Positions 3,626 to 25,000 of a stretch of 64,000 bases of DNA are shown here, in pieces. The notes beneath the pieces are model-generated. The model was not told the DNA's origin and did no database searches. It saw only the letters and a list, made by a program, of their open reading frames with translations. The translations under genes were made by a program, and so were the position numbers. The stretch spans positions 1,673,669 to 1,737,668 of the forward strand of contig NW_004457442.1 in assembly GCF_000313135.1 (NCBI RefSeq), in the 5' to 3' direction. The stretch comes from Acanthamoeba castellanii str. Neff (taxonomy: Eukaryota > Discosea > Longamoebia > Acanthamoebidae). Position 1 is the first letter of the stretch. Each line of letters begins with the position of its first letter.

Positions 3626-3705
3626 TTGATGTTGAGGCCAGGTTGTGAAATCACCATTTTTCTCTTTTTTTTTAACACGCCCCTTCGTTACCCTATTTAC
3701 CGCCG

Positions 3706-4801: not shown

Positions 4802-4869
4802 GTTGGGAATAAACTCTCCTTTTTTTTATTTCTCACAAATTACAAAAAAAGTTCAAAACGCATCCAAAT

Positions 4870-5725: not shown

Positions 5726-5897
5726 ACAGCCTTCATCCCACACGATGGCACAAGGCTGGCGGGTGGGAGCAGCACAGCCATCACAAGCTTGCGTCTCCTC
5801 ATCCACCAACGGCGGCCACAGTGACACGGCCCAGAGACACTTCGAAACAACATAATGCACTTCAAGAAATGATCGGGAAAATAAAAAGGAATCAAAG

Positions 5898-7275
5898 ATG
5901 GAAGATGATGGCCACGATGGGGTCGAGGTGGAGGTTGGAGGAACCTCCTCGTCGGTGCCATCGCCCGAAGAGCACCAGGCGCAGGATTCCCTGATCGATG
6001 TAGATGAGGGTGGGCCGCAGAAGAGCGAAGTTCTGCAATCGACTACCGAGGCGACTAGGGCTGGCGAACAAGGCAGCCGGCAGCCCACAGCAACGACAGC
6101 CACGGCATGCGATTCTAGCCCTTGCTACGGCCCTCAGGTGCAAGCCGCAACAGTGCCAAGAGCAAACGAAGAAGAGGAGATGAAGCAGGGAGGTGCGAGC
6201 TCTGGCGCTGAGGAAGAATCTCGACAACAAGATGAAACGGGCAACGAGGTGCCACACGAAGCTGCGTCGCGAGAGCCTCGCCTCGATGGGGCCGCGCCAC
6301 CCGCCTCGCCCACTACATCCGATGCCAACCACCGTACCGAGCAAACTCGTGGAGAGATTGAACCGAACGAGGAAGAACGCGTAGACGGAAGCGAGAACCG
6401 CACGAGCGACAACGTCACAGCCAGCGAAGTAGACGGGCAACAGGCGGAGGGCAAGACGGAGGAGGCATCATCATCACCAGCGGCCTCGCCCTTGGACGGT
6501 GTAAAGGGCGGCGCTGCTATTGCTGAAGACAAAGCGAACGCAGAGGTGAAGCGAGAGGGAGAAGAAGAAGATAGAGCGGAGAAAGACGGGGGAGAGGAAG
6601 AGGTGGTGGAGGAGGAGGAGGGAGAGGAAGAAGACGACGGACGCGGCCCGCCACCGCCCAAGGGGTCGGAGGTGTTTGTAGGCGGCTTGCACCGTGACGC
6701 CACCGAGGACGACGTGAGGGAGGTCTTTGCGAAGATCGGCGACATCTACGAGGCAAGCACGATCTTCCCCCCAGCTCGTGTGGTGTGCGGTGTGTGTCGT
6801 GTGTGCGGCCGTGATTGTATTGACGGCGTGTGGTCGTGGGTCATCGCAGCTCCGTTTGATGCGCGATCCGAAGACGGGAGCCAGCAAGGGCTACGCCTTT
6901 GTGCGCTACATGGAACCCACTTTCGCCGAACTCGCCGCCGATCAGCTTAGCGGCTACCTTATCATGGTTCGACCAGTCTTCCCTCTGCCTTCCCCGTCTG
7001 CTTCGTGCCCGGGCTCATCGGGTGCCTCCGCTTTCTCTCTGTGTGTGCAGGGTCGTCCGGTCGGGGTGCTCGTGTCGCAGGACAACCAATCGCTCTTCGT
7101 GGGCCACATCAGCCAGGACTGGTCTCTCGAGCAGCTCGAAGCTCACCTCAAGGAAGCGGGCATCCGGGGCGTGGACCACATCATCTTCCAGCATGTATGC
7201 TTAGCCACCACACACACCCCCAGCAGAACACATGTGCTAATGTCTAACAACAACAACAACAACAACAACAACAAT

Positions 7276-7313
<38 letters not shown>

Positions 7314-8341
7314 CGACGACGACGACGACGACGACGACAACAACAACGACAGGACCCGATGAACCCGACGAGGAACAGAGGGTTTGTGTTCATTGAGTTC
7401 AAGAGCCATCATGAAGCGGCGAGAGCGCACGGGAAGATGACCCGCGCCGACTTCCGGCTGAGCGGGCAGAAGGTCCGCGTGGACTGGGCCGAGCCCTTGA
7501 ACGAGCCCGGCGAAGACGTCATGTCTCAGGTTCACCCACGCACTGCACGCCCACGCGACACGCGACCGCACGCGGCCCGCTAATCTGTGTGTGAGATGGT
7601 GCGCGTCACCAGGTCAAATCAATCTATGTGGCCAACCTGCCGCTGGAGGTGGACAACGAGCTGATCACAACGCTCTTTGGCGAGTACGGGAAGATCGAGC
7701 GAATAGTCCTCTCCAAGAACCTGCCCACCGCGGTACCGCTCCCCCCCCCGCATACCGCCTTGGCGCTGTACTGCGCCAGTGAGTGGCGGGCGCCCACCCG
7801 CCGCCACGCTCACCCCGTGCGACATGCCTCTCGGACAGAGGCGAAAGGACTTCGCGTTTGTCAATTACGAAGAACGGGCAAACGCACTCAAGGCCATCGA
7901 CGGCAAGCACGGCTTTGAAGTACAGGGTACACGCACGCACGGCGCACGCACACACGCGTGACGCCGTCGCGCACGCGCTCACGCAGTCAGGCGCCTAACG
8001 ACCATGGTCAACCCCACAGGACGAACGCTGCAGGTGACGTTGGCGAAGCCGGTGGACGACACGACGAAGCAGGCCAAGGGGAAGAAGGGACCCTGGAAGG
8101 GAGGCGCGCCGACCGATCGAGACGGTGGCTTCCCGCCCCGCCACGGTACGCGAGGCGACCGAACGGGCCGGGGAGGCGGCATGGCGGGTCGTTCGGCCGG
8201 CCGGCGCCCGGATTCAAACAGGCAGCCCCCCCCCGCCCCTCCTACCCTCCATTCTTTACATTCTCACTCACGGCTATATCGTGTGTCGTGTGTCGTGTGC
8301 CGTGTGGCTATTTGTATCAACAATCTGCAGGGGAGGAATGA
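5898..8341 (+). CDS. SYNCRIP/hnRNP R-Q-like RNA-binding protein with three RRMs
   Basis: Spliced plus-strand gene. It opens with a long acidic, low-complexity N-terminal region (residues 1 to about 250, rich in Glu, Ser and Ala). Three RNA-recognition motifs follow. RRM1 starts at EVFVGGLHRDATEDDV and continues after an intron with GASKGYAFVRYMEP. RRM2 has SLFVGHISQDWSLEQLEAHL and NRGFVFIEFKSHHEA. RRM3 has SIYVANLPLEVDNELIT and KDFAFVNYEERANALKAIDG. The order, spacing and linkers (DWAEPLNEPGEDVM between RRM2 and RRM3; VTLAKPVDD after RRM3) match animal hnRNP R/Q/SYNCRIP. That family binds mRNA and acts in splicing, stability and translation. A basic tail follows. Joining the donor at 8147 to the acceptor at 8330 gives the stop at 8339-8341. 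An alternative longer Gly/Arg-rich tail would end at 8439. Confidence 0.85.
7246..7350 (+). repeat. (AAC)n then (GAC)n trinucleotide tract inside an intron
   Basis: About 105 bases of nearly pure AAC triplets pass into GAC triplets and then AAC again. The tract lies within the intron that separates the two halves of RRM2 of the hnRNP gene (donor GTATGC near 7196, acceptor CGACAG ending at 7352). It runs right up to the 3' splice site, where a pyrimidine tract would normally be. Its triplet period means it stays open in several frames, but the poly-Asn/poly-Asp reading is not part of the RRM fold. Confidence 0.9.
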
Positions 8342-8483
8342 GGGACGGACGAGGAGGTGTGAGAGGGCTGAACAGAATGCGATCACCGCATGATGGTGCG
8401 TTTTCTTCCCTGGTCGACCAGGCCAGACATTTCGAATAGCTTTCCACGTTTGATGATACAACGTTGACACATGGCCAGACGAC

Positions 8484-9681
8484 ATGCCGCCGTACGCGTA
8501 CGACAGCGACGGGCTGCCATCGCCGGGGCTCATGACGCCGCCGCCGCTCGAGATCGCCCTGTCGCCTCTCGGTAGCGGCATGCTGCCCCCGCCTTCGCCC
8601 GCGGGCGTCATCGTCGTCCCTACGCCGGCTCCCGGTGGCGGTGGGCTCACGTTCCGTTGCGAGCTGTGTGACCTCGGGCTCAACTCCGAGAGCCAGCTGA
8701 TGCAGCACTTCCAGGGACGCCAGCACTTCAAGGCCCAGCAGCTCCAGCAACACACGCGACAACCACCCATCAGTGCCGCACCCACTGCCGGCTTTGCCTT
8801 GCTTTTCTTTTAAAATGTTGTTTTTCATTTATTGAACTTTTTTTCCCCCAGATTACCCACCACCGAGCTACGCGGGGCCGGCGATGCCGTTCGACTCGTC
8901 GCCGATGATGGGCAAGGTACCAAACACAACCCACCCACTCTTTACGGGTTGCCTGACCATGTCGTGTGTATGTGTGTGTGTGTGTGTGTGTGGTGTGTGT
9001 GTAGCGCAAACGCATGCCGCCAGCGGGACACCAGGGATTCGCACGAAACCCCAGGCAGAGGTCGGATGATCACACCGTCGGGGTCCCGCCGTCCGGTTAT
9101 CTCGGAGGACACCAGCACCACCTTCCGACGGCCGACCTCTACGCACCGCCGCCATCGTATCCGCACCACTACTCTCCATCTCCGCCTCCGCCTCCGGCCC
9201 CTCACCACTATCACTATCACCACACGCCCTATGCCGCACCGCACCCGCCCTCTCCGGGACCCGTCTACTACGCTCCCTCGCCGCCGTCGCCACCCGACTA
9301 TTAGTACGCCACCGCTCCTCTTCGAGTGCCGCCCGTTCCTTTGGCTGCTGACGACTGCGCAATCCTGTGTCGCCCGCGCACGCGCACACACGACAGTGGC
9401 GGTTATGGGCAAGCTTACGGGGCGGGCTATGCGAGTGGTGGCTACGGCGCACCTGCTTATGGAGGGCAGTATCCGCAGTACCCTCCTCCCCAGGCCTATC
9501 CGGCCTATTCGCAAACCTACGTTCAGGTGAAGACTCGTCGTGTGCCGTGGTGTGTATTGTTTCGTGGCCATGCGTGCCCCATCGGTTATTCACATTCTGT
9601 GTTTTGTGTGCGTTGCAACAGTACACCCCGGTCGTTACAAGTGCTGGTGCAGCTGGTGTGCAACGCCGTGGGCAGCTATGA
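8484..9681 (+). CDS. U1-type/matrin-like C2H2 zinc-finger protein with Pro/Tyr/Gly-rich tail
   Basis: Spliced plus-strand gene beginning at MPPYAYDSDGLPSPGLM. A single zinc finger follows with the spacing FRCELCDLGLNSESQLMQHF then GRQH, i.e. C-x2-C-x12-H-x5-H. This is the U1C/JAZ/matrin type that binds double-stranded or structured RNA. Downstream exons give AGPAMPFDSSPMMGK and a His/Pro/Tyr-rich region (SPSPPPPPAPHHYHYHH). A GYG repeat region (YGQAYGAGYASGGYGAPAYG) comes next, and the last exon ends at QRRGQL. The final intron (donor GTGAAG at 9529, acceptor before TACACC at about 9622) is clear. The joins around 9290-9400, where a TAG interrupts the frame, are not. The gene begins about 140 bases after the hnRNP stop, so the two could conceivably form one longer transcript. 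I treat them as separate. Confidence 0.65.
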
Positions 9682-10044
9682 GAACATGCCACTATTGTTG
9701 TTAAGCTCTCAATTACATTGGAAACTCCTCGTACTGCGTTTTCGTTCCAAGAACGCAGTATTCCGATCTGGAGGTCATTCCTACACCTCCGCTTCCTGCT
9801 GACCCTTGCGCCTGATCTTTTAAATGCCTGCGGGGAAGAATGTGTGAGCTACCGCAGTGCCCAACCAGCGAACTAAACAAGAAAGGTCACCTGCAGGATT
9901 CCACGTCGTGGGACGGGACGACTTGTTGGGTTGTTCTTTGGATCGCTCCCGTTGTGCTTCGAATTGCTTATCGACGTGTGCTTCAAGTTTCCTTCCAAGT
10001 CCTTAGATTTGCTCAGTGATAAACCACTTGCAGCGCAGATAGAT
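9682..10044. other. Intergenic spacer between zinc-finger gene and transposon
   Basis: About 360 bases of host-like, moderately GC-rich DNA following the zinc-finger stop codon. No coding potential, RNA gene or repeat is recognisable. The spacer ends at the TTAA target site (10045-10048) of the transposon. Confidence 0.6.
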
Positions 10045-10048
10045 TTAA

Positions 10049-10129
10049 GGTGAGTTTTCCATACCTAAGGTAGGGACACAGAAAATGCGTGCCTGAGCTA
10101 CCTAGATGTGAAAGGTTTGGGTACCTAAA
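10049..10129 (+). repeat. Left terminal inverted repeat of the transposon
   Basis: 81 bases from GGTGAG to GGGTACCTAAA, preceded by the target site TTAA at 10045-10048. It is the reverse complement of 21886-21966 with one mismatch. It contains two internal ACCTA/TAGGT-like motifs that may be transposase sites; that is an inference. Confidence 0.92.
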
Positions 10130-10238
10130 TGAATAAAGACACATTAGCAGGCATGTTGTGCCAAGTAGTTGGAATGGGCAGGAAGGCGGGCAGTGAGAAG
10201 GTTTTGTGGTTGAGGTGTTTTTATTGGGTGAATGGCGA

Positions 10239-13200
10239 TCACACAGCAGCACCCTCAGTGTCAAAGAGGTACTCAGCAGTAGCGTGCTGTAGCTCAGCAG
10301 TTCTTGCTGCAAAGTCCGCTAGATACCTATGTTCATGGTCTTCATGAGCCCTTGCCCAAGTGCATGACATTCGTGCCCACTTGGTCAGGCAGACGTGGAA
10401 TTGATGGTTGGAAGGGTTGTGGCGGCTGCTCCTAACGTTGCTGTTGAACCTGAGAGCCTCAGAGTTGCGGGCAGTGATGGTGTTGGTGACATGCTGGTCG
10501 ATGGTGGTTCACATGAGGAGGTGGGCAACTATCACATGCTGCTGCTGCCCAAGCTGCCATGCACAGCACATGGCCTGGCGGTCAGTTGCTGGATTCCAGC
10601 TTGACTTAACAAAGATGACCTCGGTCACCTGCTGAAGGTTGATGCCCACGGCGCACATGTTGGTGGAGAGGAGGAGCACGCCATGCAGGGTCAAGCTGAG
10701 GAACTGTGCAAGTTGCTTGGCATGCTTCTCAGTGGGGATGCGGCCTGATACCTCAAGGATATCAAGGTTGCATGGGTGTTGCTTGTGAAGTTGGTGCCTG
10801 AGGATGGTGAAGGTGTGCAGGTGCTGCCCAAACACTGCCAGCTTCCTCCCCTCATCAAAGGCGCATTGCACTTGCCTGTGGGCAAGAGATGCGCAGGTGT
10901 CAGAGGGTGCATTGATCTTTATCTTAGTGGGTTTGCAGTAGGCAACTGAGGAACATGTACCTAGCAATGTAGCTGGTCTTGGCAGAGTGTGGTAGGTTGG
11001 CCCAGGTATCAGGCATCAATGCGACTGCAGGCGCCTTGCGGTGGATGGCAAGGCCTGCAGGTGGACAGTTGATGCTGTTGAGCACTTCCTTCCACTTTTC
11101 CATGTCACCAGGAGTGGCACTGGAATGGTGGGAGAAGAGTTGCTTGGGTGCCCGCTTGCTCCAGTCAGCCTCCATCCACTGGCGCATGGTAGGCAGGTCA
11201 CAGAAGTCCATGAGCTGCCTCTTGTTGATGGCACCGATCTGGTACAACCACAGGGGGATGGTGAACCAGTGCTGAGCAACCACGTGCGAGGTGTGTCTTG
11301 AGCATTGTTTGATCAGGTGCCAGCCCAGCACACCCTGCAGTGAAGATCTTGTGCATGACCATGTCAGGCGCCCAAGGTTCAAGGTACATGATGTGGAGGG
11401 TGATATCTGTGGAGGATCAAGGTGAGGGATGTGGATGTGTGTGAGGCATGGACAAGAAGGGTTTGCTGGTGTACCTGGAACTGCTACAAGAGGGCTCTTG
11501 TCCCTGTTGAGGTCGCCCTTGAGTCGATGAATGCAGAACTGGGCCAGGGCACTTTCATGGAAGAAGCAGCACATGCACTTTCCTGAAATTGCTCATGTTG
11601 TTGAAGATCTTCAGGTAGCTGAGGATGTTATCCTTGCTGGTCTTGAGTGGGAAGCCTGGATGGAGTGCAATGGGTAGAGTTGCAGTGGAGTGGTGTTGTG
11701 CTGTTAGAGAGGGGACTGTCACAGGTCAGGAGGGGCTTAGGTACCAGTCATGCCAATGGCAAGTTCACTCTTGACCTTCATGGCATGTTGGAAGCGGCTG
11801 GTCTTGTCATCCTTGAGGTTCTGCATCTCATCCCACACAACTCACTGCCAGACTGGCTTGTGCAACTGTGCAAATGAGTAAAACAAAAGAAGTGGTTGGT
11901 CACATGCTGTTCTGGCATGCAATGGAGAAATGGAAGGCAAAGTACACAGGGCTGGGGCAGCGTGTCATAGGTAACAATGACCACATGCATCTCATCCAAG
12001 GAACACTCATTCTTATTCACAAAATCCTGAAGTGCCTTGCTGCTTGGACAGGTGACAACATGGCTCAGCTTGGTACCCAGCCATTTGCACACCTCCTGGC
12101 GCCAGTTCTCAATGACCAGGGCACCTGGAGCTACAACAAGCGTAGGCCATCATGGATGTGCTGCCAAGGCTGCAAGAACCATGACTGCATGCACAACAAA
12201 CAGCACACATACATGCATGCATGCACACAGGCACATGCTCCTGATCAGAAGGGGTATCTGGGGAGGTAGGGGGGAAGGTGAGTCTGAGGTACCTGTTTTG
12301 CCCAGGCCCATGTCATCAAAGAGAAAGCAGCCACCAAACTGAGCCGTTTGCTCACACTTCAGGATGAAGTCCACTCTGTCCTTCTGGAATGGCAGCAGCT
12401 CACCTGTGAAGCAAGCTGACCTGCAGGGGGGAGTCATACAAGAGGTGAGACAACCTGTTCACAACATGCAATGCCTAGCTATTCTAGGTTCTGAAGCTAC
12501 CTTGACTGTGGCTCAGTGGAAGGAAGGTTGCTGCTATCGTCCTCATGCTCCAAGGGTGGGTCAATGGCGGGGAGGATCGTAGGAGGTGGCGAAGAGGAAT
12601 CTGAGGCTGGCTTGATGACCTCAGGCATGGACCTAACACGAAGATTGTAGCTCAAGGCAGCTTCAAGGGCCTCATTGGTGACCAAGGCGAAAGTGGCCAG
12701 CTTGGCAAGCAGAAGAGCGTAGAGCTGGTCTGGCACCTTGGCGCTCTGCGAAGAGGTGGTGCTCTGTTTCTTGGCGAGACTGCTGCACAGAGCAGCCTGC
12801 AGATCCTTGGGGAGGCAGGAGGTGCAGTAGTACTTGCCACCCTCACCCTTTTGGCCCCACCCAAAGGGGAACATCACTGCCTTGCAGGTGTGGCAGTTTG
12901 GGCTGGCCTTGAGGAGGCACAATGCCAGATGCTGATGTTCATCTTTGTCAAGCTTGAGCATGGCCTTGCCTGTGATGCTGGTCCACGTGTCCCACCTGAG
13001 CCCACGTGCCTGCACTGATGGCAGGTGAAGCTGGGTCAGGTCCATCATGGCCTCCAGTGGTTGAATGTTCTCCTGGAAGGCAAGGATGAGATGTGTGCAT
13101 CAGTGTTGGTGCTGGGCACCTTCCTCATGAGCTAGGGCAGGCATGAGAGGTCCATGGGCAGAGAAGGTACCCAGTGAAGGAGAGCAAAGTAGGAGGCATT

Positions 13201-15134
13201 GTCTTGACACTTTCATGCTGCACTGAGCTGGTGAAGAGTGTGAATGAGGGTGTGGATCATCTCAGGTATGCTGCAGTGCACAAGTAGGGCCATGTCACAC
13301 ATTGCATCCTGCAATGGCATGGGAATACATGCATGATGAGCAGCGTGAAGGAGTAGCCATCAACCAGGATGGTGCTTTTGAGTCATACCTGGACTGTCAT
13401 CTCAGGCACCAAGCACAGGAGGCACCACAGCAGCTGCAGCAAGTGTCGTCCTGCTGACATGCTGGTTCCCATGGGCACCATCTCCTTGATAGAGCTAAGG
13501 TCCAACATCAGGAGTGGCCAGTCCACTGCAATGCAGTCAGCCTAGTTTATGGCAAGGTAAAACGCAGCACTTAGGGCGCTACACAACCAACCATTTATGC
13601 ACTGGCAAGAAGGAAGAGGACATACCGCGGTCTGAACTGCATACCAGGTGCCTGGGCGAATGATGATGAGGTCTCCAGGATACTGGTTGAGCACAGCCAT
13701 GCGCACCTGATCGATGAGACACACACACATGCACACACACACACACACACAAGGAAGGCATGTGGTTGCACTAAGGATGAGTGAATGTTGTTAGTACTGT
13801 GAGGTTTGGTGCCTTACCAAAACTTGTCAGAGGTGCTGGTGTTCATGAAGAAGTTCAGCCTCAATTCATCAAGCTCATTCTTCACTGGGACTTTGGCCAT
13901 GATGGCAGACTGCTTCACCATCTTGAGCATCTGTTGTGTGGTGCAGGTTGTGAGCTGATCCCATCAAAAACTGCTGGGGATGGAGCAAATGGTTCCAGGT
14001 ACCTGTTGGTGTTGCCCTGTGTGGTCTACAAGAAACCAGCTACGAAATGGCACCTGGGCTGGTCCACGATCTGCCTGCTTTCTGTTTGCCCAGGCCTCCA
14101 GCGTCTCACCAAGCAACAACAAGGCCACAGCGAGGTTGCAGGTGGCTAGGCAGAAGGAGAGACTGTGCAAACAGGACAAAGGTACATGTCAACTGTGAGA
14201 TGGAGTTCACCAGCTGATGCCCAGACAAGTGAGAATGGCAATGCATGTAAACAGTGGGGAGTGTACTGTGAGGCATGGGGGAGAACAGCCAAACCAGGCA
14301 GAGTTACTGTGTTTATGGCAGGCAACTGGGCGATGACATTTGTTGACCAATGGAACCAGCACTCTTCACACCCTTGTTCATTGAGCACCTTGCTCAGTCT
14401 TTGGCTGGTGTGCAAGCTCAGTGGCAGGCTGGTGAGCGTGGGCACCCCCTTCTCCATGTCAGGGTTGAAGTGAAGCTTCTGCATCCCTCCTGCCAACCAC
14501 TTGTTGGTGTCTTGACTGGTACCTTGCACAAATGCCTGGAGTGTTTGGCTGGAAGTTGAGCCTGTGATTGGGAAATGAGGGGAAGGCTAATGGGTGGCAC
14601 AAAATCTGGCTTTGGCATTCAATGAGCAGGTCAGTACCCTCAGGGTCATTGGCAAAGGTGAGGAAGCTATCTGGTAGCTTCAATGGTCATGTGATTGGTG
14701 CTCCCCAGGCCTTCACGTCATTGTGATCTGCCTTGTGGCGTTCAAGCATGTCTACTCTGCTGGATGCGCTGATCTGCCCAGCTAGAACATCTCAGGTGGC
14801 CATTGTTGAGGTGATTGAATCAATGAGGCTGTGGAGGTGTGAAATAGAGGTGGTGAGTAGGAGTGGTGGCATCCAAGGCATGTTCTTTATGGTGAGAGAG
14901 GTTGGTACCTTGCCACTTGAGTGGTGTTCAGAAAGCCTGCTGCCATGACAGCAATCTTGTGCCTGGAATGCTGAAACAGCTCTGCCCCAAATTGCTGGTG
15001 CTTGACAACTGCCGCCCAGTCCTCGACAACTGCCTCATTCAAGCAGGTACCATACAACTTAGCACCTTCACTCAGCAGCCTTTTCTCGCTACCATAGCCA
15101 TCCTGGTAGGACGTGGATGGAGGTTTGGTCTAAA
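10239..15134 (-). pseudogene. SNF2-family helicase, transposon-borne and apparently decaying
   Basis: Minus-strand multi-exon gene. From the N-terminal side: exons of unknown function (15134 to about 13050); a Zn-binding stretch (12,497-13,048) with CHTCKAVMFPFGWGQ then YYCTSCLP; helicase motif I (12,300-12,400) with LPFQKDRVDFILKCE and FLFDDMGLGKTG; a motif II-like VVWDEMQNLKDDKTS near 11,800; and the helicase C-lobe at 10,511-10,967. The C-lobe has motif V (LLLSTNMCAVGINLQQV) and motif VI (NPATDRQAMCCAWQLGQ). Motif VI lacks the two arginines usual in QAxxRAxRxGQ. An in-frame TGA at 10509-10511 cuts the frame, although it stays open and SNF2-like afterwards (TTIDQHVTN) to the stop at 10239. 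Two more in-frame TGAs lie near 14,790 and 14,690. SNF2 proteins remodel chromatin or translocate on DNA. Here the activity is probably lost. The N-terminal limit is uncertain. Confidence 0.7.
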
Positions 15135-15367
15135 GAACCACATAGAGGTGTAGGTGAGTGGGTGAGCTCTCTTGTATGTGTGTGTGCGGATGTGTGTGGA
15201 GGCTTTGTGTTGCATTTTATGTTGCCAGTTTTAGTGATTGCACATCAATGGCGCTCATCATTAGGCATGTTGGTTTCAACTATACCCCTTTCTTGGTGCT
15301 GCGACTCCTGCCATGGGCACTTGCTTGCGCTGCCACATGTGCACGCACACATTGAAGATGTAAGCAC

Positions 15368-16310
15368 TTAGCTGTGGTGGCAGTAGAAGGGTTTAGCACC
15401 TTTTTTGCTGGCCCCCTTCTCCTGGATGCAGGGTGATTGGTGCTTGCCACTGGTGGTGGTTTTCATAGTTGCCTGCTCTTCTTCCTCTTCTTCGTTGTCC
15501 TGCTCCTCCTCACCTTCCTCCCCTTCCCCCTCTTCCTCATCTTCCCCCTCACCTCCTTCGCCTTCCTCATCACCACCTGTTGCCTTGCCCTTCGCTGCCT
15601 TGGTCAGTTGGGAGGTTGTCACCTTGGCGCGCTTGGTGAGATGCATGGCTGGTGCTTTGGCCTTCTTCACTGGCTTCATCTCTTCAACATCAGGGAATTC
15701 CTCCTTGCTACCTTCCTCCTTGTCCTTGTTGCTAGGTACATCATCATCTTTCGCCTTGCCCTTTGCTGCCTTGGGTGGTTGGGAGGTTGTCACCTTGGCA
15801 GGCTTGGCAACAGGCATGGCTGGTGCTTTGGCCTTCTTTGCTGGCTTGGTCTCTTGACAATGTCAGGGAATTCCTCCTCACTACCTTCCTCCTCATCCTT
15901 GTCACTAGGTACTTCATCATCTTTCACCTTGCCCTTCACACCTTGGGTGGTTGGGAGGTTGTCACCTTGGTGCACTTGGCGAGATGTGTGGCTGGTGCTT
16001 TGGCCTTCTTCACTGGCTTCATCTCTTCAACATCAGGGAATTCCTCCTCACTACCTTCCTCCTTGTCCTTGTTGCTAGGTACTTGGTTGTCTTTCACCTT
16101 GCCCTTGGCTGCATGCTTGGTAGCTGTCTTGGGTGTTGCCTCAGCCTCTTTGCCACCTTCCTCATCCTCACTCTCTGGGATGTGCTTCCTCTTCTTCTTC
16201 TTCTTCCTCTCCTTCTCCTTCTCACCAATGTCATCCTCATCAATATCCATTTGGGAGGCAAGGATGTCAGGTGAGGCTTGGAACAGTTGTGAGGGCTCCT
16301 CATCCAAGTT
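15368..16310 (-). pseudogene. Lys/Glu-rich tandem-repeat protein, frame broken between repeats
   Basis: The minus-strand frame starts near 16307 (MDEEPSQLFQASPDILASQ). It has an acidic segment, a poly-Lys nuclear-localisation-like run (KERKKKKKRKH), then about three copies of a roughly 60-residue repeat of the form VPSxKDxEEGSxEEFPD followed by KPVKKAKAP and KVTTSQPPK. It closes with a Glu/Gly tract and FYCHHS before the stop at 15368. The repeat units no longer share one frame. One base is missing near 15,940 (AAGGTGTGAAGG against AAGGCAGCAAAGG in the other copies), and the spacing changes again near 15,860. This may be a decayed gene, or very small introns may skip the shifts. The composition resembles chromatin-associated linker proteins, but no function can be assigned. 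It may be the N-terminal part of the helicase transcription unit or a separate gene. Confidence 0.5.
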
Positions 16311-16747
16311 GATGTAGGTTGGTTGGGTGCCTATTATGACACAATAGGGCTAGGTGTCAGTTCCAAAGGGGCAGTTGCTTAGGCAAGGTATCATGTACCT
16401 GTGTCCACACAAGTCCTGTTCCCCAAAGGTGATGGGGCTGGCAGTCTGGTGATGTGCAGCACCAGCACATGTGGTCTGCCTGAAGGTGCAAGACTAGTAG
16501 CACATAAAGGCAAGAGTGAGTAACACTCCACACAGCTTGTGTGTGCATGCAAAACGTCACAATGGGTACTGCTTGTGAGTGGAGTTGTGAAGCCTGACAG
16601 ACTGGGGTAAGGTGATAAGGCAGCCCCAGGACGCAAACCTGCCCTCCCACCAAATGTACCTGGTGAACCTGCTGATGTGTGATTGGGAGCAATGCACTCA
16701 GTGACATGCAACAAACAACACACAGAAAGGCAGGTGCGTGGTTGTGA

Positions 16748-17577
16748 CTACATACCAACACTTCCCATAAGTGCCATCTGCTGCACTTGAAGCACCATCA
16801 TCTGTAACTGGCTGTTACTCTTGCACAGGACTCTCAGTTCTTCTTTGTACTTTTCTGTGAGTTGGCAGACCTCCTCATGTAGTTGAGGAACTTGTGAAGT
16901 GTCAAGTTGGTGAGCCCAGAAGAAAAGCATGACACCAGTGCCATAAAGCCAGTAAGGTACCTGTAGCTCACACTCTCACCTGGCTGTTGCAGCAGCCATG
17001 AGCACCAGGCACCTCCTCCTCTTCATAGCCAGGCACTGGCTCCACAAGTTGCTCAAACTTCTCTTTGACCTTGAGGTACATGTCCTCATTGACAAGGTAC
17101 ACCCAAACAGGCTCCTTCTCAATGGCAGCCATGCAATCATTTGAGAGCTTCACTGCTGGTCCAAACAAAGTTCCATTCCAGCACTTCATCTGCATGACAA
17201 ATCAGTGTGTGCATGAGATTGCTTGGCACCATGGCACAGTACAGGTTTCTACATACATTGATCTTGGACACCATAGAACTTGGTTCTGCTGAACAGGCAG
17301 TTGACCACCTTTGGATCCTTGGCGCATTCAATGCAAAACAGCATTGTCAATTTCACAGCTTTGCCACTGTTCTGCATAGACTGCCATGCACCACCTTTGT
17401 CATGCAACCAAATAATGGACAGGCAGGAAGGTGGGAGGTGGAGCAACATACCAAGTACCTCCACGCCATGTAGAGCAGCAGGTTCGTCCTAGCCTGCTTC
17501 TCCTTATTCGCCAGCCAAACCTCCCAGTCTGACTCCTTGTCAACAGACCTGAAGTCACACTTCACAACTGGAAACGA
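16748..17577 (-). CDS. Unknown transposon protein, several exons with coiled coil
   Basis: Successive minus-strand segments look coding. They are: VKCDFRSVDKESDWEVWLAN after a clear acceptor near 17,566; GKAVKLTMLFCIECAKDPK and VVNCLFSRTKFYGVQDQ; CWNGTLFGPAVKLSNDC, with MAAIEKEPVWVYLVNEDMY and an acidic YEEEEV; and a predicted coiled coil at 16,748-16,930 (VPQLHEEVCQLTEKYKEEL). Donors GTACTT, GTATGT and GTACCT are visible. I recognise no domain. It probably precedes the Lys/Glu repeat region in the same transcription unit. The exon joins do not all resolve in one frame by eye, so the gene may be damaged. Confidence 0.4.
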
Positions 17578-18007
17578 AAAGAAACATTAGGTGGGCATCA
17601 GGTACAACACCACAAGCCTCACAGAATCAGGGGGGGCAAGGCTATACCAGGTAGCAGCAAGCCACCTGTGCAAGGCTGACAATGCTCAAGGAAGAGAACT
17701 TGGTAGGCAGTTTGTTGTAGGCCATTTGGGTTACCAAGTTGTCCATTGCACTTGCCTTGTAATGATGTGTGAATCAGTAAAGCAAGTGGACGCTATGGAA
17801 GGGCCTGGTCCTTGTCTCCATCACATACACAAGCTTCATGTCATAGAAGTGGTAGCAAAGCACATCTGGAGTGTGAATGCAAGGTTGCACATAAGTACAA
17901 CTGTAAAAGGCGAACTGATGCACCTCAAGATAACCAAATCAATTTGCCTCATGTGATTCACTTCAATGTACTAATGAATTCCTTGTCATTCACCCACCCA
18001 CACTACC

Positions 18008-18424
18008 ATGTGCAGAATCAACCCAAACACTGCATGGAGTGCTGCTTTGCTGGAAGTTACACATCTTCCTGCTATCCGCTGGGTGAATCTCATCGCAGCA
18101 GCCATGTGGACCAAGGACAATTACACTGCCAGGCAGGGGGCAACAATTGTTGTCATACCTAAAGTCATAGGAGCCAAACCTGCCAACAAGTGGCTCGCCT
18201 TAGCCATAGCCCGCACCAAGATGCAACATCTCCACACCCTCACACAGGAGGAGCACCTTGCTGAGCCAGTCTTCATCTTCCCCAAGTTCAAGGACCATGG
18301 GTTCAACCACATGCTGGAGAGACTAGCTGCCTGCCCTGCTGGACACACAACAGTCTTCATCTACAACCTCAAGGCCGACACCATGCAATCCATCTACATC
18401 AGCTCCAACCAGCCCGCTACCTAA
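18008..18424 (+). CDS. Hypothetical transposon ORF, plus strand
   Basis: Open plus-strand frame of 138 codons (MCRINPNTAWSAALLEVTHL ... SNQPAT) inside the transposon, upstream of the transposase. It contains IRWVNLIAAAMWTKDNYTAR and FIFPKFKDHGFNHMLERLA. Composition is protein-like, with Trp residues and alternating hydrophobic segments, but no family is recognised. It may be the last exon of a gene starting near 17.6 kb, since another open stretch lies at 17,591-17,956 in a different frame. It could also be a shadow in CpG-poor, stop-poor DNA. Confidence 0.35.
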   Translation: MCRINPNTAWSAALLEVTHLPAIRWVNLIAAAMWTKDNYTARQGATIVVIPKVIGAKPANKWLALAIARTKMQHLHTLTQEEHLAEPVFIFPKFKDHGFNHMLERLAACPAGHTTVFIYNLKADTMQSIYISSNQPAT

Positions 18425-18642
18425 GGTGCTTAGCTGCTCAGTACATAAAAATAAATTTACTCTTCTCCTTAGACTGAACACGTTCTTCAAATGCAAGTAC
18501 TTTCATCCATTTGCTGCAACACACGACACCCCCCAACTGACAAAAAGTTAACTTGTCCCTCGTGGCAGGTGCAGTGGGTGGGAGCTCCCACCCACCGCAC
18601 CTGCCACTCGCCCACCCACCCGCCATGTGAGGGGCAAGGCAT

Positions 18643-21600
18643 TTGTATCACCCAAGTCTCCCAATGACACACCCATTATGGGATAGCTTATTCACTGCAG
18701 AACCACCTCATAGGCAGCCCCCATCACACCTAGTGCAATGTACATTCTGCCCAGCAGTGGCGCCGCCCATGCCTACGGCCGCTGCCCGGCTTCAGGCATT
18801 TACACAAAACCTAAAAATAGGGATACCTCAAGGACCCAGGTAACACATGCACATCATGCCCTGATCTCCAGCCTAATTAGGCACAGCAGAGGTTGCCTCG
18901 CACATGTCTCAAGGCAGAAGTCACCAGGTTTGAGGGAGGCCTCTTTGCACTGCCCACATCAAGAACTTGTGCCTCAAGATGACAACTCTCACAATGAAGC
19001 GCTTGCAAGAGGTGCTTGAAGCTGAGAGAAAGGTTGCTTACTTCCCAAACATGGCAGCACACCACCAATATGACCAGTCCAAGTGTCATGCTCTCTCTAC
19101 TGCTCACACCAAGGGTCAAATCTGTGGTACCACAAACCTGCCCTGTTTCTCAACCACCAAAGCTGCAATCACAGCAAGTGCAGCAACCATGAGCCCTGTC
19201 CCCCTGCCAAACATGTCACCAGCATGTGTTTCTGTGTCCTGGTGCTTCCTGAGCCGGCAGGAGATGCTGCATGCCACACATGAGCTGCAGACTCAGGTGG
19301 AGAACAACCAGTGGATGGGTACCCCACAGCACCTTGCCTGAGCATATTTTGGTGGGTTTGTGCCCATCTCTCCAACACTCCACCATCACTGCAAGGAGCA
19401 GGGCAACCAGGAATTCATGGTAGACCTTGTTGTTGTGTTCCTTGTGTGTGCATGTGCCCTGACCTCTCACACCCTTCCTGTAGAGCAAAGCACTCTCATC
19501 ACACCTCAAGCCCATACCTCAGCTGCAGCCCCTTCCTTCCATTGCACCAAGAGGAGAGGGCTGGAGCAACACCATCATCAGCAAGGCCCTGCTCCTGCGC
19601 ATTGCACACAAGGCATATGCCAGGGACTGTTGCTGTAGGTGTCATGGACCACTCTCTGTGGAGCTTGATGAAGTGGGAGCAGTCACCACCAGCACCATCA
19701 CAAGCTGCCACCTGTGTTCAATGGTTGCTAGACTGTCAGGTACCCCCCAACAACATACCAGCCAAACCCAATGATAACACAAAACACTCACAACACACCT
19801 GTTACACAACATGAAGCTTCAGAGTCAGGCGATTTGACATCAACTAGTTGCATTGTTTGGGCTGCCCTTATGACCAAGTGTGGTCAGTGCCAGACAACAT
19901 GTCTGCTCAACATGCTTGATATGCCAGGCATCCCACAACGTGTGTGGAAGAAAGCTGAAGGTTCATGTTGGCCAGCCTGCTGCACGCCACCTGCCACCTA
20001 CAGTCACAGACACAACCTAACGCCACACACAACATCACCACACATAACACATGACACACAGAGCTACTTGGGCAGGTTGCAAAGGCTTTGTCCAACAATG
20101 TCCTGCACAACAACTGCAGCATCTGTGGCCTGAACAGCCACAAAGAGATATGTATGTCCACTCATACCTGCTCCAAGCTCTTTCCTCATGCACATGTAGC
20201 TCCAAAAGATGTCATGCTGCCATGCCATGTGGCACATGGTTTCTTTTGCTGTGTACAAGCACAGTGGCAATGATTGTGACTTACACCAATGGTTTTCTTC
20301 TCTCTCACACAGGGTTTGGTGTTCTGGACAGCGGCTGGGCAGAAAAGAGACAGTCAGGCAGTTGTGTACTCATCATGAAAGACCTCATCACCGGCAAGGT
20401 AGGATGAGCGTTCAGCACCACCCCACATTTGATGGTTGTAAAGCAGCCCACTAAGCTCTCTCTTACCTTGCTTGCTCAGCTGCTTGATGTAGAGACCGTC
20501 ATTCATGGACAGGACTACACTGGTGCCTCAACCAACATGGAATACACCACTGCCTTTGAGATGGGCTGCAGATTGGCTGTGGATGGGTGGACTGTGACAT
20601 CCATCATCACCAACCATGATGGAAAGATTCACTGTGCCTTTCACAGTGCTGGTACCTGGCTGCATACTCAAACCCTGAGCAACCAATGAACTGCTGATCT
20701 AACACACCATTCAGGGCATGTTTCCATGGCAGTGACCTACTGTGCTGGGCACCTGATGAAGAACTTCGCCAAAAGAGTGAAAGCCCTTGACGCCAACCTC
20801 AAGGTACCAAAGGGAACGCCAAAGCTGGCCAGTATGCGCCCTTCCTTCATGGTGGCACAAGCGCACCAATGCACCTGACAGAGCATTGTGCACACACATC
20901 CACAGGATTTGCAGATTGATGGAAGTGGAGGTTGGTCACAATCATGGACACATGCAGCACGATGATATTCAGTGCGCAGTGAATGTTGCCATGTCCCACT
21001 ACCAAGGGGACCACTCATTCTGTCCACCACATGAAACTACATCCCATCCTGCCACCACAAACATGCCATGCCCAGTTCTTCATTCACTCACCAACTCACA
21101 CATGTTCCACCATGCAGCAAAACCAGACCCATCAAGAATGAGGACCAGGTTGAAGCCATGAAGGAGCTGTGGAGTGAGTTGGTGGACTACCATGACTTCT
21201 ACCTGCCTGGTGTTACCACCAACATGTCTGAGGCTAGCCATTTGTATGCCAACCAACCAACCTACTGCCTACTGCTGATCTACCTCCACAAAATGACCTA
21301 GGCTCTTGCACCTTCAAGGGTTCTGCTAAATGGACAGGCAGCAAGATTATCAAGTACAGTGGAGAGGCCTTCAGGTTGCAGACCTGCCTCAGCATACTCA
21401 AGGAAGCTTGCCCTTCGTTTCACCTACATCTCCTCACCCTTCTCAACCAAACCTACTCCTCCTCTCTTGCTTTGCAACACCACTCTTGGGATGTGACCCA
21501 GGACAAGGCCAGGGAGTGGTGATGAGATCCTGCTGTCAAGAAGAAGCGGATTGTGAAGAAGTGGGGCACCTCCAAGACCAACTCACCAGCTAAGGCATCA

Positions 21601-21804
21601 GCTATCACTTACCAGCCTGAATTGCAGAAGCGCCTGAGGAAGAGGGCGCGAGCTGACAAGGCAGCACCACTACTCTACAACCACATCCTCACCACACGCC
21701 AGCGTCCTGCCCATGAACGTGATGACCCTTTCGCCTTTGTATCCAATGAAGATGAGGTCTCCACCTCATCCTCCAGCGAATCCTCTGGTTCTGCTGATGA
21801 ATAA
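18643..21804 (+). CDS. Kolobok-like DDE transposase
   Basis: Multi-exon plus-strand gene reaching almost to the right terminal repeat. Its order of blocks matches the 'Mutator-like transposase' domain found in Kolobok-type proteins. A leading block at about 19,830-19,960 (LTSTSCIVWAALMTKCGQCQ, then LDMPGIPQRVWKKAE) corresponds to the 'LNMP....W' region. The first catalytic strand is FGVLDSGWAEKRQSG (about 20,310). GQDYTGASTNMEYTTAFEMG is followed by a NHDGK turn (about 20,480-20,620). TYCAGHLMKNFAKRVKAL lies at about 20,735. HDDIQCAVNVAMSHYQGDH then FCPP lies at about 20,960-21,020. The last recognised block is VTTNMSEASHLYANQ (about 21,210). The final exon encodes a basic, nuclear-localisation-like tail (QKRLRKRARADK) and an acidic end, SGSADE. 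A possible Cys-containing N-terminal exon (VQCTFCPAVAPP) lies near 18,740. The start is uncertain, and the core frame looks undamaged. Confidence 0.72.
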
Positions 21805-21885
21805 ATGGCACTTCTTACCCCCATCCCTTGCGTTTTGCACACAGCTGTCCTACCTACCTTGGTAACATGCCATTCATATTTTATT

Positions 21886-21966
21886 TTTAGGTACCCAAAC
21901 CGTTCACATCTAGGTAGCTCAGGCACGCATTTTCTGTGTCCCTACCTTAGGTATGGAAAACTCACC
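21886..21966 (-). repeat. Right terminal inverted repeat of the transposon
   Basis: 81 bases reading TTTAGGTACCCAAACCG to GGAAAACTCACC, followed by the target-site copy TTAA at 21967-21970. It pairs with 10049-10129 with a single difference. The transposase stop codon (21804) lies 82 bases inside it. Confidence 0.92.
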
Positions 21967-22009
21967 TTAAACGTTCTCCATACAAGGGAAAGGATTTTAC
22001 AAAGTTGTC

Positions 22010-25000
22010 TTACACGACGTGGTCGAGTGAGTTGTCGAGGACGCTGGTCAAGAGCCGATCCAGTGTGCAGACCACCTGCTCCATGGTGGGCCGCTGCTCC
22101 GGTTCGGCGTGCCAGCATCGCGCCACCAGCTCCTGGAAGCACCCGCGCACCACCTCATCACCCTGGTGGTTGTTGTCGGCCACGGCGGGCGGCAGCGGCG
22201 GCCGGCGGCCGGCGATGACGTCCAGCGCTACCTCGATGAACGGCCGGCCGGCAAATGGCTGCTGACGCGTCAGCACCTCCCACATCACCACCCCGAACGA
22301 GTACACGTCGGCCTTCTCGTCGTAGTGGTGGTACCGCCGCTCATCGCTGTCGCCGTCGCCGTTGTCGCCATCGCCCGCCGATCTGTGTCGGCCCTGGCTC
22401 ATGAGTACCTCGGGCGCGGTCCAGCACGGCGAGCCGCAGCGGCCGGTCATGGTCTGGCTCTCGAGCTTCATCCGGGCGAAGCCGAAGCCGGAGACCTTGA
22501 CGCCCGTGCAGGCGTCGTCGATGACGAGCAGGGTGGAGGAGGTGAGGTGGCGGTGGAGGATCGGGTGGGGCTCCAGCCCGTGGAGATAGTGCACGCCGAG
22601 CGCAGCGGAGCGCAGAAGCCGCAGCTTCTGGGGCCAGCCGAGCGCGACCGACGCGTCGGAGAGCACGTCGCGCAGGCTCCCGCGCTTCACGTACTCTGTC
22701 ACAATGCACAGATTCTTCCGCATACACGCGCCTGTTCAACGCACCACACACATACAACACACAGCGGATTGGCTTGGATTCCACAACGACGTAAGAGAGT
22801 ATAGACGTACCGATGAAGAGGATGACGTTGGGGTGGTGGAGGTTGGAGAGGAGGGCGACCTCGGCCCGGAAGTCGAGGAGCTGGCGCTCGGGGACGGTGC
22901 GCGGGTGGTGGCCAAACCGCTTGACCACGACGTCGATCCCCTTCCAGCGGCCGCGGTGGACCATCGGCCCCAGGGGCTCGCCCACGGTGATGTCCCCCGG
23001 CGACAGGATCCACCGACACGCGTTGGCTGACGTCAGCACGTCCAGCTCGCCGTTCTCGTCGACTGTATCGGCCGCGGCGGCCATGGCGCCTGTCAACACG
23101 GCTGCGGCGCTGGGTCGGCGAGAGTTGATCTGGCCGTGGTGACGGTGGTGGCGATGGCGGCGGGAGCTGCGGTGGTAGTGATGACGTCGCCGGCCGCGCC
23201 GGTCGACATGCACGCCTACGTCTTCGCCGTCTCCGCTCTCGAGCGCCTCGTTCGAGCGGTTGGGTTTGCTCTCCTGGTCGTCGTTGCTGTCATCGTCGCT
23301 GTTGATGTACTTGCCGCGCCCGCTGCCCCCGTCCAGAGTCAAACGGCCCTCGAGCCCCGGTATCAGGAATTCGTACAATCTGACGCCTGCCCACACACCG
23401 TAAGTCACTACCGCACGACACACGCACGAACACAACACACACGTACCGAGTGGAATGTCGGGAATGTCGAAGGAGCCGAGGCATTCCACGGTTGGCATTC
23501 CACCGCCGGCGGACTGGTGGCTCTGGTCGAGCGAGTGGAGGGCCGCCTGGCTGAGCACGACGTGGCCGCCGAGCGCGAGGGCGGTGATGCGCGCGGCGGC
23601 GGACACGACCGGCCCCGCGTAGTCGACGCGCCGCGTCAGCGGGTCCATCGTCCCGCGCACTGGCCCCACGTGCACGCCCATCCGCACTCGCGGCCCCCAA
23701 TACACCACCCTATGCGTATGCGTGTCGTGAGCGTGTGCGTGTGCGTGTGCGTGTGCGATGGTGTGCATGTGTGCGACGTGGAGCGTACCGATTGTCGGTG
23801 GGGTCGCGCTCCTCGGCAGCGGCCGGGTGTTGGAGGAGCGACGCGGGCCAATCGACCGAGCCGAGCATACTGGCCTGCACGTCGACGCACCAGGCCACCG
23901 CGTCGTGCGTGTGCTGGAAGGCCATGCAGAACGAGCCCTCGCCCGTGCTGTGATGGGTCGGCATCGCTGGCGCCACGTCAGCATCGCCGCCACCGTAGCC
24001 GTCGTCGCGAAGGTGGTGGTCCACGGCGGGCGAGGCGCACAGGACCTCGTACCCGCTGTGCTGACGCAATTGCGAGCGCAGCAACTGGTTGTAGGCGAGC
24101 GTGGCGCGCTTCATGCCGGCCGGGTCGAACTCCCAGAGCGAGGCCGCGCTCGCGATATCGGCGAACACGATCGTCACATCGCCTGCGGGAGGGGGCACTG
24201 ATCGCGCCGGATGTGCCATCGCCGCCGCTACCCCCTTCGCACTTCTTCGTTCTTCCCGACCGCCTTCGCTCTTTTGGCTGTCGCTTTCGCTCTCGCTTTC
24301 GTATTCACATTCGCTCTTTTCGCCGTCGCCATCGACGGTGCTGTGCTCCGAGTCAGAGTCGCGGCCATCGTGATCATGATCAGCGTAGTTGCCGTGGTCG
24401 TGGTCGTGACGATGATGGTAGTAGTGCATCGACGAGTTGACGGAGAACATGGAGCGGACCGAACCCGACGGCAGGGTCCACGACGAATCCAGGGCTTGCG
24501 GTCGATCGCCCGCCACAAGCGCAGCTGCTGCAGCTGTCGACAATTGTCGCAATGTCGACGCACGGTCGGATGCCGCGCCCGCCAGCGAAGAGGACGGGTC
24601 GCTGTGGCGGCTGCCGTTGTGGCCACCGCGCCGCGGGGTGGCTGTACCCTCGAACATGGCGCTGAGGCGCGTCATGGCCTCGAGAAAGCTCGGGCGGGCG
24701 TGCGGCTCCTCGTGCCAGCACGCGTAGATGAGGTCCTCGTACTCCTCCGGGCACAGCTGTTGCGTGTTCTCCGGCATCCACGGTCGCATCTTATCGCGAA
24801 TCACCGCCACCGCCACTGCTGCCGGGCTTCATGTGTGTTGCGTGTGGTGTGTGCGGTTAGTCACGATACGACCACTGGCAGGACACACGGACGGTGCGAA
24901 CCTCATGCCGGCGTAGGGCTGGAGACGAGTGAGCAGCTCCCAGAGGACGATCCCGAAGCTGTATACGTCGGCCAGAGCAAGGTCGGGCTGGTCTTCCTCG

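What the first reader, a model, noticed from the sequence alone, without database searches (positions are those of the whole stretch)
10045..21970. Giant Kolobok-like TTAA transposon that carries its own SNF2 helicase
81-bp inverted repeats differing at one base are flanked by TTAA on both sides and enclose 11.9 kb. The plus-strand transposase shows the block order of the Kolobok-like DDE family (LDSGW..., YTGASTNME, CAGHLMKNF, MSHYQGDH..CPP, TTNMSEASH). The minus strand holds a SNF2 helicase and other proteins. Known Kolobok elements are usually far smaller, and SNF2 cargo is known to me mainly from other superfamilies (for example elements with TET/JBP genes). A transposon bringing its own remodeller could open or target chromatin for integration.
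Basis: partly seen in the sequence, partly recalled or inferred. Interest (0 to 1): 0.9.

Follow-up and report, generated by a model that had tools for sequence, protein, structure and literature searches.

The report
Amoeba transposon with chromatin-opening gene
An 11.9-kb dead jumping gene in an Acanthamoeba genome carries, besides its transposase, a gene that seems to join a histone-demethylase-like part to a chromatin remodeller, which suggests that it once brought its own tool against the silencing that its host applies to such elements.

Summary
In detail: 81-bp terminal inverted repeats (one mismatch), TTAA outside both, 11.9 kb between. The plus strand has a transposase with DDE-like motif order. 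Over the whole 38.4-Mb genome Pfam PF20700 matches once (E 0.0067, below cut-off), in this element's other copy. TTAA, 5'-GG...CC-3' ends and CxxH fit Kolobok (PMC9587614); no Kolobok profile could be run. The minus strand has SNF2 (E 1.6e-23). (1) SNF2 lies in one spliced frame with a CxxC...CxxC motif and the end part of a JmjC domain (E 6.8e-5, 23.7 bits, cut-off 24; 26.8 bits with a tentative exon): a predicted JmjC-Zn-SNF2 protein. (2) The copy is dead. CpG ratio is 0.18 against about 1 in the flanks; against a second copy (C248, 5.1 kb, SNF2 present) 102 of 136 doublet differences are CA/TG, so each copy lost CpGs separately. The host is Acanthamoeba (profilin II), where CpG methylation and H3K9me mark young transposons (PMC12344493). 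Most likely: a TTAA transposon whose accessory protein opposed silencing. That function is inferred; no empty site or intact copy was seen.

The parts
10045..10048 (.). TTAA, presumed target-site duplication, left
10049..10129 (+). left terminal inverted repeat, 81 bp, starts 5'-GG
10239..13706 (-). JmjC-Zn-SNF2 gene, traced part: exons 13706-13626, 13541-13389, 13308-13171, 13072-12501, 12420-12293, 12184-11946, 11865-11745 in one frame (three TGA inside), then exons from 11655 on with frame breaks; SNF2 C-lobe exon about 10875-10241; stop TGA 10241-10239, AATAAA about 10225
13500..13706 (-). end part of a JmjC domain (VLNQYPGDLIIIRPGTWYAVQT|ADCIAVDW); Tyr stands where the C244 relative has His
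12815..12895 (-). CxxC...CxxC motif (CHTCK...YYCTSC) between JmjC and SNF2
   Evidence: sequence
10239..12420 (-). SNF2 ATPase exons: DDMGLGKT, WDEMQNLKD (in place of DEAH), GMTG, C-lobe GINLQQ...DRQAMCCAWQLGQ
13813..15107 (-). tentative upstream exons of the same gene (frames uncertain, two TGA; the last of them does not join 13706 in phase as I placed its border)
15371..16349 (-). Lys/Glu-rich ORFs with three diverged ~172-bp direct repeats; may be a separate gene or an N-terminal part
18008..18424 (+). ORF3, unknown protein with an AATAAA about 18450; similar piece in C244
18979..21804 (+). transposase gene: exons about 18979-19419, 19484-19739, 19848-19960, 20062-20151, 20313-20398, 20480-20651, 20715-20805, then frame-broken coding to stop TAA 21802-21804; TGA/TAG stops and small indels inside
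20327..20329 (+). candidate catalytic D1 (VLDSGW)
20618..20620 (+). candidate catalytic D2 (NHDGK)
20741..20752 (+). CxxH signature (CAGH)
20997..21035 (+). His/Cys cluster HYQGDHSFCPPHE, candidate zinc finger; kept in C248, DHSFCPPHE also in C229
21230..21232 (+). candidate catalytic E (TTNMSEASH); Lys in the C248 copy
21886..21966 (-). right terminal inverted repeat, 81 bp
21967..21970 (.). TTAA, presumed target-site duplication, right; 39 bp from the stop codon of a host kinase ORF

Best explanation
The stretch 10045-21970 is an old, inactive copy of a large cut-and-paste DNA transposon of an Acanthamoeba genome, with 81-bp TIRs at TTAA. When alive it encoded a DDE-type transposase of Kolobok-like kind on one strand and, on the other, a JmjC-zinc-SNF2 protein. 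SHOWN: the ends, the genes on two strands, SNF2, the end part of a JmjC domain in one spliced frame with SNF2, a second copy carrying the same TIR, transposase and SNF2, and CpG decay of each copy after they parted. INFERRED: the transposase cuts at TTAA; the JmjC part removes a repressive histone mark (H3K9 methylation is the candidate, since H3K9me1/3 goes with 5mC in A. castellanii) while SNF2 moves nucleosomes, so that the element's genes stay expressed and its ends accessible; the host methylated the inserted copies at CpG and they were lost by C-to-T change. Structure about 0.9; Kolobok membership about 0.65; anti-silencing role about 0.42.
For: TIR/TTAA; five genome matches to the 21-bp TTAA+TIR tip, TTAA kept in 5 of 5 although three mismatches were allowed. 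Transposase: motif order; PF20700 has one match at E 1 in the whole genome and it is C248:131984-132280, inside the second copy's D2-CxxH region, while piggyBac PF13843 and MULE PF10551 match only elsewhere. SNF2. JmjC: E 6.8e-5 on the single-frame 477-aa peptide that also holds SNF2 at 9.3e-21, E 7.6e-6 with upstream pieces; seven exons and the start of an eighth with GT-AG borders in consistent phase; related exons in C244 with His in PGTWH. SNF2 is no recent host capture: the best-scoring match outside the element's copies is 29% identical. Transposase exons diverged less than non-exon sequence between copies outside CpG (38 differences over 1849 sites against 71 over 1777, Fisher p 6e-4). 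CpG. Host; 5mC at CpG with H3K9me in A. castellanii (PMC12344493 section 6).
Against: The assembled 748-aa transposase matched no Pfam family at E 10 and none of 1070 protein candidates scored at E 10; frames of the C248 copy gave no transposase family either; PF20700 is below its cut-off (19.3 against 26.5 bits) and rings in C248, not in the window. JmjC is 23.7 bits against a cut-off of 24 without a tentative exon, only its end part was found, its presumed iron-binding His reads Tyr here, the C244 piece alone gave no Pfam match and PDB gave no JmjC. SNF2/JmjC exons show no codon-position bias in the non-CpG differences (14, 12, 12). The candidate catalytic E is Lys in C248. No transcript, no intact copy, no empty site. 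TTAA could be part of the TIR rather than a duplication. Two of five tips have no more of the element beside them. PMC12344493 reports no overall 5mC enrichment on DNA transposons.
Confidence: 0.47

Rival explanations
1. Same element, but the SNF2 protein serves transposition itself: it clears nucleosomes from the ends or the target so that the transposase can cut and integrate.
For: SNF2 is kept in two copies with the transposase; the insertion lies 39 bp from a host ORF's end, a single case.
Against: Does not call for a JmjC domain in the same protein. No target preference could be measured with one full copy.
Confidence: 0.26
2. Passenger genes: the element picked up a chromatin gene that has no role in its life.
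For: No codon-position bias in SNF2/JmjC exons between the two copies.
Against: The same gene is in both copies, and JmjC-linked exons also occur at C244; matches outside the copies are 22-39% identical, so capture was not recent; SNF2/JmjC exons differ at 38 of 1341 sites outside CpG against 71 of 1777 in non-exon sequence.
Confidence: 0.17
3. The transposase is not Kolobok but a separate or MULE-like (PF20700) group that also uses TTAA.
For: Only PF20700, which Pfam names Mutator, matched, and below cut-off; no Kolobok model was at hand.
Against: MULE model PF10551 matches other loci only; TTAA, GG/CC ends, CxxH and a His/Cys cluster before E are the printed Kolobok features (PMC9587614). 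MULE duplications of 8-11 bp are recalled, not tested.
Confidence: 0.25
4. A remnant of an integrated virus or a viral composite rather than a transposon.
For: Acanthamoeba holds many methylated viral insertions (PMC12210455 passages); methylated islands could look alike.
Against: Six-frame Pfam scan of the element at E 1 lists no capsid, polymerase or packaging protein; exact TIRs with TTAA; intron-rich genes; no exact match to the TIR tip in viral contigs (that collection may leave out records of this genome).
Confidence: 0.04
5. CpG loss is not methylation decay: the element came from a CpG-poor donor.
For: CpG ratio 0.18 inside, about 1 outside.
Against: 102 of 136 doublet differences between the copies are CA/TG, which needs CpG in their ancestor and separate losses.
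Confidence: 0.02

Closest known systems
Kolobok superfamily (PMC9587614)
   Same: TTAA, 5'-RR...YY-3' ends, TIRs, DDE-type transposase with CxxH, His/Cys cluster before E, accessory gene on the other strand in some lineages
   Different: Accessory proteins named there are DEDDh and PD-D/ExK nucleases, His-Me nuclease, RecQ helicase and KolX; not SNF2 or JmjC. Here 11.9 kb and intron-rich. Acanthamoeba does not occur in that paper's main text.
KolobokH and Kolobok-1_CCri (PMC9587614)
   Same: A Kolobok with its own helicase; in Kolobok-1_CCri the helicase is on the complementary strand, as here
   Different: RecQ helicase there, SNF2 ATPase with JmjC here
DNA transposons with TET/JBP dioxygenase in fungi (PMC12730594)
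   Same: A DNA transposon carrying an Fe/2-oxoglutarate-type enzyme (class recalled for JmjC) that may undo silencing
   Different: TET/JBP acts on 5mC; here a JmjC-like domain fused to SNF2; other transposase groups, no Kolobok in that paper's main text
Kinetoplastid JBP2 (recalled, not looked up)
   Same: Dioxygenase domain and SNF2 in one protein
   Different: A host gene with a TET/JBP domain, not JmjC, and no transposon
VANC anti-silencing proteins of Arabidopsis VANDAL transposons (PMC10398659, abstract start in a listing only)
   Same: Transposon-encoded factor that counters epigenetic silencing
   Different: VANC is described there as a sequence-specific protein; no JmjC or SNF2 recalled

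Membership tests
Kolobok | TTAA target-site duplication | tested here: inconclusive
   TTAA outside both arms and at 5 of 5 tips, but the search pattern held TTAA (3 mismatches allowed) and no empty site was found in this assembly or in viral contigs
Kolobok | Termini 5'-RR ... YY-3' (PMC9587614) | tested here: met
   5'-GG ... CC-3'
Kolobok | DDE order with C/DxxH between second D and E | tested here: met
   D1 303, D2 373, CAGH 393, E 558 in the read-through peptide; motif level only; E reads K in C248
Kolobok | Zinc finger between CxxH and E (almost all but Kolobok1) | tested here: inconclusive
   HYQGDHSFCPPHE in window and C248, DHSFCPPHE in C229; ligands not proven
Kolobok | Placement in the Kolobok DDE tree | not testable with these tools
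PF20700 (Pfam name Mutator) | Score over curated cut-off | tested here: not met
   19.3 bits against 26.5; yet the only match in the genome at E 1 and inside the second copy
piggyBac | PF13843 match | tested here: not met
   two genome matches, C148 and C175, not this element; none by hmmscan
MULE/MuDR | PF10551 match | tested here: not met
   two genome matches, C238 and C190, not this element
SNF2 ATPases | SNF2-rel_dom and Helicase_C | tested here: met
   1.6e-23 and 7.6e-10; best PDB matches 1z63 and Ino80
JmjC | PF02373 over curated cut-off (24 bits) | tested here: inconclusive
   26.8 bits, E 7.6e-6, profile 61-112 of 114, when 15 residues of a tentative upstream exon are included; 23.7 bits, E 6.8e-5, profile 79-112, on the single-frame peptide
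JmjC | Iron-binding His in the PGTWH stretch (position recalled) | tested here: not met
   Tyr in the window, His in C244; region not present in C248
KolobokH | RecQ helicase | tested here: not met
   SNF2 instead

The most novel reading that the evidence does not exclude
A lineage of TTAA DNA transposons in Acanthamoeba encodes a one-protein chromatin eraser, JmjC demethylase fused to an SNF2 remodeller, as a counter-weapon against H3K9me/5mC silencing; and the host answers with CpG-specific mutation of inserted copies at roughly 50-65 times the background per cytosine, fast enough to suggest an active RIP-like process rather than plain decay of 5mC.
Probability: 0.25. Interest if true: 0.88.

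Novelty: new variant of a known kind. Interest (0 to 1): 0.71.

Why it matters
Several Kolobok lineages are told apart by their accessory proteins, and none named in the parts of PMC9587614 that I read has a chromatin enzyme. A transposon with a JmjC-SNF2 protein would show that mobile elements can carry an eraser and a remodeller in one protein against host silencing, in an amoeba whose methylome, histone marks and strain genomes are public, so the idea can be tested. The paired CA/TG pattern gives a sequence-only record of CpG silencing in Acanthamoeba, and may explain why DNA transposons there showed no overall 5mC enrichment: old copies have few CpGs left to methylate.

Tried and rejected
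Empty site: a query of the two joined flanks found only the two flanks themselves in this assembly, and a 23-base exact join found nothing in viral contigs.

Homologous proteins: transposase, none of 1070 candidates at E 10; JmjC-SNF2, 345 proteins at E 0.001 among 7991 scored (more candidates existed), of which the 120 listed show SNF2 (PF00176) and, as far as I read the list, no PF02373, so no relative with the same layout was seen. PDB with the JmjC stretch: four weak hits, E 1.1-1.2, all one glucosaminidase. Rfam on 4000-24000: none. Frames of C229 on the minus strand: no Pfam family at E 1.

Considered and dropped: a viral origin; a CpG-poor donor; treating C229 and C244 as full members. 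C229 (CpG-poor island about 79.25-90.4 kb) shares a transposase block (68% over 25 aa) but I found no TIR pair at its edges; a DEMQKL...SRHFQH trace there lies on the same strand as its transposase block, unlike the window, and BLAST did not report it. C244 (island about 8.4-22.2 kb) shares JmjC-linked exons and an ORF3 piece, but no SNF2 domain or convincing transposase match was found.

Claims that such an element is not in print rest. Papers: PMC9587614 abstract, outline, sections 9 and 10, passages; PMC12344493 section 6 and passages; PMC12210455, PMC10799480, PMC12730594 passages; all others search listings only. Of the four papers with Kolobok and SNF2 only PMC10799480 was opened (passages); they tie KolobokH to DEAD and Helicase_C domains and name SNF2_N as a non-TE domain.

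Full report
1. What is there. The window is G000:C124:1673669-1737668 of a 38.4-Mb genome in 250 contigs. A profilin on the same contig is identical over 125 of 125 residues to PDB 1f2k, profilin II, which I recall as Acanthamoeba castellanii; so the host is an Acanthamoeba. The element runs from TTAA 10045-10048 to TTAA 21967-21970. Its 81-bp TIRs differ at one base, 10113. The right TTAA is 39 bp from the stop of a host ORF whose relatives are named protein kinases.

2. Transposase. Plus-strand exons from 18979 to the stop at 21802-21804 give, in order, LDSGW, YTGASTNME, NHDGK, CAGH, HYQGDHSFCPPHE and TTNMSEASH. D1-D2 are 69 and D2-E 184 residues apart in the read-through peptide. Pfam found nothing in that peptide at E 10, nor in the plus frames of the C248 copy, and the protein collection nothing. 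A whole-genome search with PF20700 (Pfam name Mutator; that it is a DDE domain is recalled) gave exactly one match at E 1: C248:131984-132280, E 0.0067, 19.3 bits, below the 26.5 cut-off, in the D2-CxxH part of the second copy of this element. piggyBac PF13843 (two matches) and MULE PF10551 (two matches) ring elsewhere in the genome and not here. By the printed definition of Kolobok (PMC9587614, passages and sections 9-10 read: TTAA, 5'-RR/YY-3' ends, C/DxxH, a zinc finger before E in almost all lineages) the element fits in what could be tested; placement in the Kolobok tree could not be tested.

3. The accessory gene. SNF2 is secure. The exons upstream of it contain VLNQYPGDLIIIRPGTWYAVQT|ADCIAVDW. 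From 13706 to 11745 seven exons with GT-AG borders, and the start of an eighth at 11655, keep consistent phase from there through a CxxC...CxxC motif to SNF2 motif III; three TGA interrupt the frame. The borders are my choice by eye; the agreement of phase is the result. The 477-aa peptide of these seven exons gives SNF2-rel_dom at 9.3e-21 and JmjC (PF02373) at E 6.8e-5, 23.7 bits against a cut-off of 24, profile positions 79-112 of 114. With pieces further upstream JmjC reaches 26.8 bits, E 7.6e-6, profile 61-112, but the nearest of these pieces does not join in phase where I placed its border. So the parsimonious model is one JmjC-Zn-SNF2 protein, with the first part of JmjC not recovered. 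Beyond 11655 the SNF2 part has frame breaks and one more TGA. The SNF2 Walker B motif reads DEMQ. The stretch upstream to about 15107 is tentative; a Lys/Glu-rich repeat gene (15371-16349) and further minus-strand pieces to about 17.5 kb may or may not belong to it. ORF3 (18008-18424, plus) is unknown.

4. Relatives in the genome. C248:128297-133441 is a 5.1-kb copy, 86-90% identical, lacking element positions 1-34, 1241-2690 and 3484-8826 (position 1 is 10044); it keeps the SNF2 C-lobe, exons that follow JmjC, the transposase and the right TIR. Two more tips, C248:133641 and C94:587744, share only 43 and 31 bp. C244 has JmjC-linked exons (55, 46, 46 and 64% identity over the four matched pieces), with His in PGTWH where the window has Tyr, and an ORF3 piece, but no SNF2 or convincing transposase match was found. 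C229 has one transposase block. SNF2 matches outside the element's copies are 22-39% identical, 29% in the best-scoring one.

5. Decay. CpG observed/expected is 0.18 in the element and 0.92/1.08 in its flanks; in the window, 300-base stretches below 0.45 fall only in the element (with the stretch that overlaps its left edge) and between about 4.8 and 5.8 kb. Aligned with C248 (4787 columns after dropping three columns around gaps), CG/TG/CA states are CA-CA 456, TG-TG 420, CA-TG 99, CG-TG 39, CA-CG 25, CG-CG 7. Over all columns CA/TG makes 102 of 136 doublet differences; the next commonest doublets have 3 each. If decay goes equally to TG and CA, the ancestor had about 2 x 99 + 64 + 7 = 269 CpGs here (277 with all columns), of which 58 (window) and 23 (C248) remain, about 21% and 8%. 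Elsewhere 137 of 4461 columns differ, 49 transitions and 88 transversions. CpG loss is then about 4.0 events per CpG over both branches against 0.031 changes per other site (0.040 outside exons): about 50-65 times per cytosine. I recall factors near 10-15 for methylated CpG in mammals; so a more active process is possible, not shown. Transposase exons carry 38 non-CpG differences over 1849 sites (codon positions 9, 10, 19) and non-exon sequence 71 over 1777 (p 6e-4); SNF2/JmjC exons 38 over 1341 (14, 12, 12).

6. How it most likely worked. In A. castellanii 5mC is almost only at CpG, sits preferentially on young retrotransposons and on some DNA transposon inserts, and goes with H3K9me1/3 (PMC12344493, section 6). 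A transposon with its own JmjC-SNF2 protein in such a host is best read as carrying an anti-silencing tool, as fungal transposons carry TET/JBP (PMC12730594, passages) and VANDALs carry VANC (PMC10398659, listing only). Shown: the gene content and the decay. Inferred: demethylation, remodelling, and their use. The alternative that SNF2 serves cutting or target choice is open.

7. Known or new. Searches of open papers for Kolobok with SNF2 (4 papers), Kolobok with Acanthamoeba (0), KolobokH (3), JmjC with SNF2, DNA transposon and transposase (1), and JmjC with terminal inverted repeats and transposase (3) gave, in the listings and the passages that I read, no description of such an element; subscription papers and Repbase were not searched. 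I file it as a new variant of a known kind: a probable Kolobok with a new accessory protein, seen here only in dead copies.

Noticed in passing
window 4930-5650: A second, short CpG-poor island (CpG ratio 0 from 5001 to 5600) between normal stretches; probably another decayed element.
   Followed up: partly
C244:6781-6814 and 22412-22445: A perfect 34-bp inverted repeat 15.6 kb apart; one arm lies at the edge of a 14-kb CpG-poor island that also holds a weak integrase (rve, E 0.0013) match near 16.7 kb.
   Followed up: partly
C248:124000-133641: CpG-poor block with the 5.1-kb copy and, 200 bp to its right, another TIR tip: nested or neighbouring insertions; long N runs further out on both sides.
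   Followed up: partly
C94:586884-588556: 187-bp inverted repeats (97%) about 1.3 kb apart in a CpG-poor stretch, with a related TTAA tip at 587744 between them.
   Followed up: no
window 15568-16121: Three diverged ~172-bp direct repeats coding a Lys/Ala/Glu-rich stretch on the minus strand.
   Followed up: no
window 10044-21971: Several predicted introns begin GTACC, and AGGTACC recurs beside the inner TIR edges; a family-wide splice-site habit may exist.
   Followed up: no
window 22010-22735: Host kinase ORF next to the insertion has a 99% identical protein in JGI data (P0121, longest contig 5,940 bases), a possible source of an empty site.
   Followed up: no
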